Assembly (NCBI GenBank): GCA_017935575.1
Contig: JAGBHI010000079.1
Location: 1 to 62,812 of the forward strand
DNA length: 62,812 nt
Direction: 5' to 3'
Source: Bacteroidales bacterium
Lineage (GTDB): Bacteria > Bacteroidota > Bacteroidia > Bacteroidales > G3-4614
Made by a program: the position numbers and the translations under genes. The notes under the pieces are model-generated. The model was not told the origin of the DNA. It did no database searches and was given only the letters and a program-made list of their open reading frames with translations. Within the stretch, counting starts at the first letter, position 1. Every line of letters starts with the position of its first letter. This document shows, piece by piece, positions 49,958 through 51,705 of the stretch.

Positions 49958-50002
49958 TTGTTAGTTATCAACTACGTTGCCCTTGCAGGGTAGTTGTTAA
50001 AG
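49951..50002. repeat. Class-1 intergenic repeat after the phosphatase gene
   Basis: TTTTTAGTTGTTAGTT at 49951-49966 is followed by CAACTACGTTG, the core CCCTTGCAGGG and TAGTTGTT. The core base sequence differs from other copies but is still self-complementary. It overlaps the phosphatase stop (TAG at 49955-49957) and lies between two convergent genes. Confidence 0.65.
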
Positions 50003-50020
50003 ATATTTCTCATATACAAC

Positions 50021-51448
50021 TTATCTATCACTTAGCTTAAAAGGTAGAATTATGCTTCGTATATAACACATCTTTTTATCAATCATTTTTTTTCTTATAG
50101 GGATAACAATCTCCTTTGTTATAGATTGAGCAAAAGATTTTATCTCGTCTTTCAATGGCAAATCGTATGCATCACCATCAAACCATATATAATCTAAATA
50201 TATTTTCCCTGAACATGGATATAGATCAACCGATATATATTTAACAATTGACTCTCCTTCTCTATTATACAATTTATGTTTTGGGAAATGACGTTGAACA
50301 AACACTCTTAATGAATCCCTAATCATATATAATAGAGAGTCATTATTTTTATAGATCTCAGGGAATAAAACAGCTTTTGATGAATTCCTATGAGCAATGA
50401 GAGACTCTTCTTTATAACGTGCAAATATATTATCTATTTCATTATTGGTAGAGTCGGCAAAAAAGATATTATAGGTTATATCTCCTCTCTTCTCCTTTAT
50501 TGTTCTATCATCAATAGATTTCACTTTGTGATTTTCCCTATCTCTCCATTTGAATTTATTACTAATAATCTCGATATCCGAGCAACCAAGAAAAGGATAA
50601 AATCCTATTGATTTAACACTCCGAGGAATATCAACTTTTGTTAATGACACACAATTATTAAAGGCATAACTTCCTATATATTTTAAAGAGGAAGAGATTT
50701 TAATATCCGATAATGACACACAATTTGAAAACGCATGTCTCTTAATCTCTTTTAGCGAGGGAGGAAAAGTTATTGTACAAATAGACGAGCCACTAAAAGC
50801 ATTAACTCCAATACTTGAAACCGAATCTGGAATAATAGTGTTTTTGCAACCCAATATTATCATATTACTCTCAGTCTCAACTATTGCATTACAATTATTG
50901 CGAGAATCATATATAGGATTAGCCTCTGAAACAATTATAGTATCAATGTTTGTACACCCTACATAAGCCGACGGACTTATATACCTTACACTCTCGGGTA
51001 TATAGATTTTTTGAATATTATCATATTCTTTAAAAGCACCTTCCCCTATTGTTGTTATACTATTTGGGATTACCGTACCATTTGCACCTAATATTATAGT
51101 GTTACTTTTTGTCTCAATTATTGCATTACAATTATTGCGAGAATCATATATAGAATTAGCCTCTGAAACAATTATAGTATCAATATTTGTACACCCCACA
51201 AAAGCCGACGGACTTATAAACCTCACACTCTCCGAAATATAAATTTTCCTTAGATTTTTACAATATGCAAATGCGCTATTATCTATTTTAGTAACCGATG
51301 GAGGTATATTAAGGACAGAAATATCTTTATCATACGCATATTCTCCCCGTCGGATCTCGGTTACTACATCATCTATATCAAAACATATAGAGACAGAATC
51401 AACACTATAACCAACAAATATCAGAAAGAATAGAAATAGTTTTTTCAT
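50021..51448 (-). CDS. BspA-like leucine-rich repeat (LRR_5) secreted protein with unknown C-terminal domain
   Basis: 475 residues from ATG 51448. Signal peptide MKKLFLFFLIFVGYSVDS. LRR_5 units occupy about residues 35-295 (SVTKIDNSAFAYCKNLRKIY, FSNCVSLSDIKISSSLKYIG). Within them a 79-residue block is duplicated (SPSAFVGCTNIDTIIVSEAN and SPSAYVGCTNIDTIIVSEAN). The remaining 180 residues (from about NKFKWRDRENHKVK) match no family I recognise, and there is no type IX sorting domain. BspA-type repeats often bind host or microbial surfaces; that is only family inference. Codon use is more AT-rich than in neighbouring housekeeping genes. It is divergent from greA-HIT and convergent with the phosphatase gene. 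Confidence 0.8.
   Translation of the reverse strand: MKKLFLFFLIFVGYSVDSVSICFDIDDVVTEIRRGEYAYDKDISVLNIPPSVTKIDNSAFAYCKNLRKIYISESVRFISPSAFVGCTNIDTIIVSEANSIYDSRNNCNAIIETKSNTIILGANGTVIPNSITTIGEGAFKEYDNIQKIYIPESVRYISPSAYVGCTNIDTIIVSEANPIYDSRNNCNAIVETESNMIILGCKNTIIPDSVSSIGVNAFSGSSICTITFPPSLKEIKRHAFSNCVSLSDIKISSSLKYIGSYAFNNCVSLTKVDIPRSVKSIGFYPFLGCSDIEIISNKFKWRDRENHKVKSIDDRTIKEKRGDITYNIFFADSTNNEIDNIFARYKEESLIAHRNSSKAVLFPEIYKNNDSLLYMIRDSLRVFVQRHFPKHKLYNREGESIVKYISVDLYPCSGKIYLDYIWFDGDAYDLPLKDEIKSFAQSITKEIVIPIRKKMIDKKMCYIRSIILPFKLSDR
50884..51247 (-). repeat. 237-bp in-frame duplication inside the BspA-like gene
   Basis: TTGCATTACAATTATTGCGA occurs at 50884 and 51121, exactly 237 bp (79 codons) apart. 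About 127 bp around each copy is nearly identical. Confidence 0.85.
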
Positions 51449-51470
51449 ATTGCAAATTTTCTGCAAGTTA

Positions 51471-51478
51471 CAAAAATA
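51471..51478 (-). promoter_or_regulatory. -7 box for the BspA-like gene
   Basis: On the minus strand TATTTTTG (51478-51471) fits TAnnTTTG, 22 bp before the ATG at 51448. The leader would be very short. Confidence 0.45.
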
Positions 51479-51610
51479 TTTCTATTCATCTTTTATCTCT
51501 ACTATTGATTTGAGCATTGAGAAAACGACGGCAAGATAGTCGCAAACGCGGAAAAAGAAAATGAAAGCACAGTTAAGAGCGAGGTAAAATATCAATTAAC
51601 GCAAGCAAAA

Positions 51611-51634
51611 AGACCGCTGGTTTTTCAGCGGTCT
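51611..51634. terminator. Intrinsic terminator after the greA-HIT operon
   Basis: AGACCGCTG (51611-51619) pairs with CAGCGGTCT (51626-51634). A/T runs flank both sides, so it can stop minus-strand transcription after HIT and also act from the other side. Confidence 0.85.
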
Positions 51635-51647
51635 CTTTTATCTTTAT

Positions 51648-51705
51648 TAGTTTTCAAACAACTAAAAACTACCCGAAGGGCGGTGTAATCGAAAACTAAC
51701 AACTA
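51648..51705. repeat. Class-1 intergenic repeat after the HIT gene
   Basis: Contains AACAACTAAAAACTA, core CCCGAAGGG, and AAAACTAACAACTA, which ends exactly on the stop codon (51703-51705) of the HIT gene. Confidence 0.65.

What the first reader, a model, noticed from the sequence alone, without database searches (positions are those of the whole stretch)
50021..51448. BspA-like protein with a 180-residue C-terminal domain of unknown type
LRR_5 repeats are followed by a domain starting near NKFKWRDRENHKVK and ending SIILPFKLSDR that matches no family I recognise. No type IX sorting domain is present, in contrast to the 1972-aa protein. The domain contains regular beta/alpha patterns (VQRHFPKHKLY, VKYISVDLYPCSGKIYLDYI), so it is likely folded. 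It may be a new sensor or anchor domain.
Basis: partly seen in the sequence, partly recalled or inferred. Interest (0 to 1): 0.5.

Follow-up and report, generated by a model that had tools for sequence, protein, structure and literature searches.

The report
LRR protein carrying orphan immunity-like domain
A secreted leucine-rich-repeat protein of a Bacteroidales bacterium ends in a domain that its relatives make as small separate secreted proteins, often next to a predicted protease-like toxin gene, so it is probably a borrowed toxin-immunity domain on an adhesin-like scaffold.

Summary
In detail: minus-strand ORF 50021-51448 (475 aa) is a signal peptide (by eye), BspA-type LRR_5 repeats (Pfam 3.7e-46) and a ~180-aa C-terminal domain that matches no Pfam or NCBIfam family. 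'Sensor or anchor' is not supported. In six of eight genus genomes the domain occurs as standalone secreted proteins ('B'), often in tandem. All nine 'A' genes seen have a B directly downstream. A has no signal peptide and is modular: its core matches an Rhs-type toxin tip, its N-terminus that of GH108 muramidases followed by small lipoprotein-like ORFs (controls 79, 91). A's model resembles zincin metallopeptidases, weakly. B's model matches DUF5043 (4qe0, Z 8.7, next unrelated 4.1); three DUF5043 genes overlap the ends of zincin-motif ORFs. Sequence profiles do not link B to DUF5043.

Best reading: B is a periplasmic immunity family against A-type toxins; the window gene is an orphan copy fused to LRRs, in an AT-rich, lineage-specific insertion. 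The fusion was seen only here. Neutralisation is inferred, not shown.

The parts
50021..51448 (-). 475-aa secreted LRR_5 / B-domain fusion protein (ATG at 51448, stop at 50021)
   Evidence: Pfam LRR_5 3.7e-46
51389..51448 (-). predicted signal peptide (about residues 1-20, by eye)
   Evidence: translation; no signal-peptide program was available
50564..51337 (-). BspA-type LRR_5 region (about residues 38-295), including two very similar ~70-residue units
   Evidence: Pfam LRR_5/LRR_8; repeated units visible by eye
50024..50566 (-). C-terminal B domain as searched (residues 295-475); folded core from about residue 307 (nt 50530)
   Evidence: paralogues, alignment A1, AlphaFold2 pLDDT 81 / pTM 0.79, DUF5043-like fold
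51611..51634 (+). 10-bp-stem terminator-like hairpin in the gap between this gene and the HIT-like gene; T tail on the + strand
   Evidence: consensus scan; 2 found, 0.7 expected
49958..51702 (.). lineage-specific interval between the alkaline-phosphatase-like and HIT-like genes
   Evidence: synteny: 0 of 6 assessable relatives have the LRR-B gene here; gene GC 30.7%, lowest of 39 window ORFs of 150 aa or more

Best explanation
The C-terminal domain belongs to a genus-restricted family of secreted, periplasmic immunity-like proteins (B, probably a far branch of the DUF5043 fold) that protect against a modular effector (A) whose core is a zincin-metallopeptidase-like polymorphic-toxin domain. 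The window gene is an orphan B whose export signal and scaffold come from a BspA-type LRR protein. The likely mechanism: the protein is exported by Sec, the LRR part holds it in the periplasm or at the surface or binds a partner, and the B domain caps the incoming A-type toxin of neighbouring strains. Shown: homology of the domain to B, the A-B gene pairing, A's modularity and link to an Rhs-type toxin tip, the fold match, and the accessory nature of the locus. Inferred: that A is toxic, that B neutralises it, and that the fused copy still does. The confidence below is for the origin and family role; retained protection by the fused copy is a sub-step at about 0.4-0.5.
For: Homology: own-genome paralogues 2.2e-13 and 4.1e-11; the window domain scores 168 bits, E 1.6e-49, against the B profile, which includes it; the tree groups it with the B that follows A in L030 and an orphan B in L032, 99/92. 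Pairing: 9 of 9 A genes have a same-strand B directly downstream, gaps -11 to +72 bp; these nine were noticed in loci fetched for B, but a separate A-profile search found 7 strong A genes in four genus genomes, all at these loci. A and B are found in the same six genus genomes, and neither in G003 and G007. A's core vs an Rhs C-terminal domain: hhalign E 5e-8, score 61; A's N-terminus vs GH108 muramidases: E 1.5e-8, scores 63-66, GH108 itself 1.5e-23. Controls: best unrelated of 192 ORFs scores 34 (8 of the 192 are A and 2 GH108); 100 shuffles of each reach at most 22 and 26. The GH108 gene of G263 is followed by five lipoprotein-like ORFs, that of G066 by one small secreted ORF. B fold = DUF5043 4qe0, Foldseek 2.8e-3, Z 8.7, 139 aligned, rmsd 4.0. 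Three of six DUF5043 genes in G080 overlap by 4 bp the end of an ORF with [HE]E..H and N.EIEA. Gene GC 30.7%, like four A/B genes measured at 27.6-32.6%.
Against: The window gene has no A gene beside it. B and DUF5043 are not linked by sequence: hhalign E 0.049, 0.0095 under other settings, single-sequence matches at noise, and 0 of 25 members hit PF16446. Z 8.7 is only a little over the best Z of 7-8 that the tool reports as usual for models without a clear match, and TM is about 0.5. A vs the DUF5043-linked ORFs: E 4.7e-4 but 0.98 with other settings; single scores 18-30 overlap the noise. A's zincin matches are weak (Foldseek E >= 0.3; Z <= 6.8), and Glu replaces the first HExxH histidine in 9 of 9 A rows. 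The genome-search E-values for A outside the genus are not reliable alone: a deacetylase-like ORF in G056 scored better (4.9e-6) than the Rhs tip (8.5e-5), though by hhalign it falls to 33 against 61. No delivery system was found: TssD over cut-off in 0 of 8, VipB 0 of 11, phage sheath 0 of 12. The fused domain is divergent (at most 30-32% identity) and keeps 10 of 17 well-conserved columns.
Confidence: 0.6

Rival explanations
1. The B domain is a former immunity domain reused as a structural cap or adhesive end of an LRR adhesin; toxin binding has been lost. (Shares the origin of the best explanation, differs in present function.)
For: Divergent (at most 30-32% identity, long end branch 0.74), 7 of 17 well-conserved columns changed, orphan location, fusion to an adhesin-type scaffold.
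Against: 10 of 17 well-conserved columns are kept, Y32, Y51, F94, G104, F129, Y134, I142 and F145 among them (domain numbering), and the fold is predicted with fair confidence.
Confidence: 0.25
2. A is a housekeeping or host-directed protease and B its secreted partner (inhibitor, chaperone or pro-domain); no inter-bacterial toxin is involved.
For: The zincin-like model would fit any protease; no T6SS or sheath was found to deliver A.
Against: A's core also forms the tip of an Rhs-type protein; A's N-terminus is found on muramidases with their own small secreted followers; B copies are tandem and divergent and also occur without A; by eye A lacks a signal peptide while B has one.
Confidence: 0.13
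3. Polyimmunity protein: the LRR part is itself an immunity domain (Imm-LRR of Zhang et al. 2012) and the protein guards against two toxins.
For: Imm-LRR and fused polyimmunity proteins are described (PMC3482391, passages and section 39).
Against: LRR_5-type sequence is common in the genus (7 to 33 places per genome match the whole window protein, B hits included), which suits a general scaffold; pairing of LRR genes with toxins was not tested.
Confidence: 0.1

Closest known systems
DUF5043 family (PF16446; PDB 4qe0, BACUNI_01052)
   Same: Fold over 139 residues (Z 8.7; next unrelated 4.1); small secreted Bacteroidales protein; tandem copies; three of six copies in G080 lie directly behind a zincin-motif ORF.
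   Different: No sequence-level match; the window copy is fused to LRRs; 0 papers of the library hold 'DUF5043'.
Polymorphic-toxin immunity proteins and polyimmunity loci (Zhang et al. 2012, PMC3482391)
   Same: Gene order toxin then immunity, homogeneous tandem arrays, secreted Bacteroidetes immunity proteins such as Imm65 with signal peptide and lipobox.
   Different: B matches no Pfam family; the text of section 39, which I read (figures not held), names no fusion of an immunity domain to a BspA-type LRR protein.
BspA-like LRR_5 surface proteins
   Same: N-terminal two-thirds of the protein.
   Different: C-terminal B domain; none of the 25 other B places in the genus lies in a frame longer than 240 aa, two of them being cut by contig ends; no T9SS tail.
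PVC-type / zincin toxin metallopeptidases with HExxHxxQ-E signature (PMC3482391, passage)
   Same: A has EExxHxxQ plus a downstream N.E.EAK; zincin-like model.
   Different: First His is Glu in 9 of 9 A rows and in the Rhs tip; one DUF5043-linked ORF keeps HExxH, with a longer spacing to Q.

Membership tests
BspA-like LRR_5 protein | Pfam LRR_5 above gathering score | tested here: met
   156.6 bits against a cut-off of 27.7, E 3.7e-46
T9SS cargo | C-terminal sorting domain | tested here: not met
   No sorting-tail family listed at E<=10 in Pfam or NCBIfam
DUF5043 (PF16446) | Match to the Pfam model | tested here: not met
   0 of 25 B members at E<=1; profile-profile E 0.049 / 0.0095, single sequences at noise
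DUF5043 (PF16446) | Shared fold | tested here: met
   4qe0 Z 8.7, rmsd 4.0, 139 aligned; next unrelated Z 4.1; Foldseek E 2.8e-3, probability 1.00, TM 0.46-0.51. Z is only a little over the tool's usual best of 7-8.
Polymorphic-toxin immunity protein | Gene directly downstream of a toxin gene | tested here: inconclusive
   Met for standalone relatives (9 of 9 A genes) if A is a toxin; not met for the window gene itself, an orphan
Polymorphic-toxin immunity protein | Partner carries an exchangeable toxin domain | tested here: met
   A core = Rhs C-terminal domain E 5e-8; A N-terminus = GH108 effector-like N-terminus E 1.5e-8; controls
Polymorphic-toxin immunity protein | Binds and neutralises the cognate toxin | not testable with these tools
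   Needs experiment
TonB/TolA C-terminal domain | Fold match above background | tested here: inconclusive
   TolA and HasB: Foldseek E >= 0.05; TolA Z <= 3.6, in the background range
T6SS effector-immunity pair | T6SS genes in the genome | tested here: inconclusive
   TssD over cut-off in 0 of 8 genus genomes, one sub-threshold match; the same model rings in 5 of 198 order genomes; VipB 0 of 11, without a Bacteroidales positive control; draft genomes, so absence is not proven

The most novel reading that the evidence does not exclude
The protein is a secreted LRR-immunity chimera: an adhesin-type LRR scaffold that presents an orphan immunity domain outside the cytoplasm to intercept a protease-like toxin before it acts, and the B family with DUF5043 forms a previously unrecognised superfamily of periplasmic immunity proteins against zincin-like toxins, delivered by a route other than the T6SS.
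Probability: 0.25. Interest if true: 0.7.

Novelty: new variant of a known kind. Interest (0 to 1): 0.5.

Why it matters
It turns an unknown domain into a testable toxin-immunity prediction, gives DUF5043 (a solved structure for which I found no published function) a candidate role, and suggests that bacteria can mount toxin-immunity domains on adhesin-type LRR scaffolds.

Tried and rejected
Anchor, sensor, TonB-like or chaperone-like domain: searched by profile and fold; TolA/HasB and type III chaperone matches stay at background. B hits outside the genus in the order (393 genomes) and class (395 genomes) searches were few and weak (G016, G033, G144, G160, G225, G454, G757; best 1.8e-6); six of seven begin within the first 14 profile positions, the signal-peptide end. 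I did not inspect them one by one and did not accept them. G096 (8.6e-4, interrupted frame) was looked at only as an ORF list and left as probable chance. Of the five weak A hits outside the genus, G263 and G066 (GH108) and G212 (Rhs) were accepted; G073 (EF-Ts-like ORF) and G056 (deacetylase-like ORF, names by eye) were taken as chance, although G056 had a better search E-value than G212; hhalign scores are 34, 33 and 61. Of the nine DUF5043 places, three follow a zincin-motif ORF (two of these ORFs are cut by contig ends), three form an array that starts 364 bp into its contig with no toxin in view, one is at a contig edge, L137 lies in an efflux-type ORF and was taken as chance although it passes the cut-off with its neighbours, and L138 is below cut-off. 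T6SS and contractile sheath as delivery route: not found. Viral contigs: none of 28 candidate stretches encodes an A relative. PDB sequence search with the B profile: nothing significant. Promoter scan: no more than chance.

Full report
What is there. ORF 50021-51448 on the minus strand codes for 475 residues. It begins with a signal-peptide-like stretch (by eye), continues with BspA-type LRR_5 repeats (3.7e-46, to about residue 295) and ends in a 180-residue domain with no Pfam or NCBIfam match. No type IX sorting tail is listed. The genome is a 2.03 Mb draft in 99 contigs, 88.75% complete. Six named loci with A genes (see below) come from four MAGs: four loci from three cecum MAGs (two water buffalo, one goat; labelled Muribaculaceae or Bacteroidales) and two from Bacteroidales bacterium SIG122. 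The source of the window itself is not known to me.

The domain without LRRs. In its own genome the domain has a standalone paralogue on C68 (191 aa, secreted by eye) followed by a truncated copy, and a fragment cut by the end of C93. A search of 99 genomes, the own one included, gave 7 with hits, six of the genus and one weak outside. In the genus there are 25 places besides the window; their open frames are 81-240 aa, so none is a fusion of this kind, although the C93 and G005 C40 copies are cut by contig ends. G003 and G007, both 99% complete, have none. By sequence the family is confined to the genus as far as searched: 393 order and 395 class genomes gave only weak extra matches.

The partner gene. 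Reading the fetched loci showed a second family, A (326-430 aa, no signal peptide by eye), with a B gene directly downstream on the same strand in 9 of 9 cases, gaps -11 to +72 bp. The loci had been fetched for B, so this count alone is biased. A separate search with the A profile over 393 order genomes found seven strong hits, in four genus genomes, all at these loci; G001 and G005, whose A genes were seen by reading loci, do not appear in that list. Some pairs look orthologous between species (L033/L039, L034/L040), so the nine are not all independent. B arrays without A also occur (L031, L032).

What A is. A matches no Pfam family (seven members) or NCBIfam family (nine members). Two outside matches show that it is modular. 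Its core aligns with the C-terminal domain of an Rhs-type protein in G212 (49 columns, 41% identity, E 5e-8), which is followed by a 195-aa lipoprotein-like ORF. Its N-terminus aligns with that of GH108 muramidases in G263 and G066 (60 columns, E 1.5e-8 for G263; GH108 1.5e-23 and 4.6e-20); behind it G263 has five lipoprotein-like ORFs and G066 one small secreted ORF. In a control of 192 ORFs (8 of them A, 2 GH108) these matches score 61-66, while the best unrelated ORF, EF-Ts-like and itself fetched as a hit, scores 34; 100 shuffles of the Rhs tip and of the G263 protein reach at most 22 and 26. Against this, the genome search gave a deacetylase-like ORF in G056 a better E-value (4.9e-6) than the Rhs tip (8.5e-5); by hhalign it scores 33. 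The Rhs identification rests on the Rhs end motif, recalled, not on a family search. A's invariants include E242 E243 H246 Q249 and N267, E269, E271, K273. The AlphaFold2 model (pLDDT 74, pTM 0.64) matches solved structures only weakly (Foldseek E >= 0.3, unrelated folds among the lower rows), but the 50 entries of the second-look list are nearly all zincin-type metallopeptidases (Z 5.1-6.8, 117-183 residues). In all nine A rows Glu stands where the first HExxH histidine would be, so catalysis is open.

The fold of B. With 13 sequences the window domain models at pLDDT 81, pTM 0.79. The best solved structure is 4qe0, a DUF5043 protein of Bacteroides uniformis: Foldseek 2.8e-3, VIA Z 8.7 over 139 residues (9% identity), with nothing else above 4.1. 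The tool warns that models without a clear match often reach a best Z of 7-8, so the gap to the next row carries the argument. Sequence does not confirm the link: hhalign 0.049, 0.0095 under other settings, noise in the control, 0 of 25 members hitting the Pfam model. DUF5043 itself was found in 4 of 295 order genomes; in G080, three of six copies start inside the last codons of an upstream ORF whose end carries [HE]E..H and N.EIEA; the other three form an array with no toxin in view. The match of A to those ORFs is suggestive only (E 4.7e-4; 0.98 with other settings; single scores 18-30). The common theme, a DUF5043-like secreted protein behind a zincin-motif ORF, thus rests on fold, motif and gene order together.

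The window gene as an accessory. The block PorV-like, IspF-like, HIT and GreA, with the alkaline phosphatase in some, is conserved in the genus (names recalled), but the LRR-B gene is in none of six assessable relatives: G001 has a gap without an ORF of 60 aa, G002 and G005 a 216-aa gene, G006 that gene and two more, G003 and G007 lack both it and the phosphatase there; G004 is cut by the contig end. At 30.7% GC it is the lowest of 39 window ORFs of 150 aa or more (mean 40.2, sd 2.6), close to four A/B genes measured (27.6-32.6%). In the tree the window domain groups with the Bs of L030 and L032 (99/92), the former directly behind an A gene, but its branch is long. It keeps 10 of 17 well-conserved columns of the mature domain.

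Conclusion. The homology of the domain to the B family is firm (about 0.95). That B is an immunity family is well supported by gene order and partner modularity (about 0.75) but untested. That the fused copy still protects is at about even odds or less. How A leaves the producing cell is unknown: TssD is absent over cut-off in 8 of 8 genus genomes while the same search rings in 5 of 198 order genomes, and VipB (no Bacteroidales positive control) and sheath were not found.

Literature. I saw passages and section 39 of Zhang et al. 2012 (PMC3482391): Imm-LRR, polyimmunity loci and proteins, Imm65 with signal peptide. PMC10470768 and PMC12247911 (Bacteroidales T6SS immunity, orphan immunity genes) were seen only as listings with abstract starts. 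No paper in the library holds 'DUF5043', and none holds all of 'immunity protein', 'leucine-rich repeat', 'polymorphic toxin' and 'BspA'. In two further listings no title or abstract start joins a BspA-type LRR protein to an immunity domain; full texts were not read.

Noticed in passing
L115:5295-9123, L116:6855-8334: GH108 muramidase-like proteins share A's N-terminal ~60 residues and are followed by five (L115) or one (L116) small lipoprotein-like or secreted ORFs: a candidate delivery domain in genomes where no VipB or sheath was found.
   Followed up: partly
L133:2167-3506, L134:3001-5273, L135:1-1556: DUF5043 genes overlap by 4 bp the ends of ORFs with zincin-like motifs; L134's partner looks like a lipoprotein and keeps HExxH.
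   Followed up: partly
L118:1322-7954: Several toxin-tip-like ORFs, two with the Rhs end motif, with small secreted or lipoprotein-like ORFs behind them: looks like an Rhs tip and immunity cassette array.
   Followed up: no
window 49958-51702 and L147-L153: The gap next to the HIT-like gene holds different genes in different species (216-aa ORF, 353- and 163-aa ORFs, LRR-B, or none): a variable insertion site.
   Followed up: partly
L029:6631-6852 and G005:C10:10804-11202: Broken B copies: a 73-aa truncated one and one with an internal stop.
   Followed up: no
L033:2423-3766, L039:12460-13803: LRR_5 proteins without an obvious signal peptide lie a few kilobases from A/B pairs in two species.
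   Followed up: no
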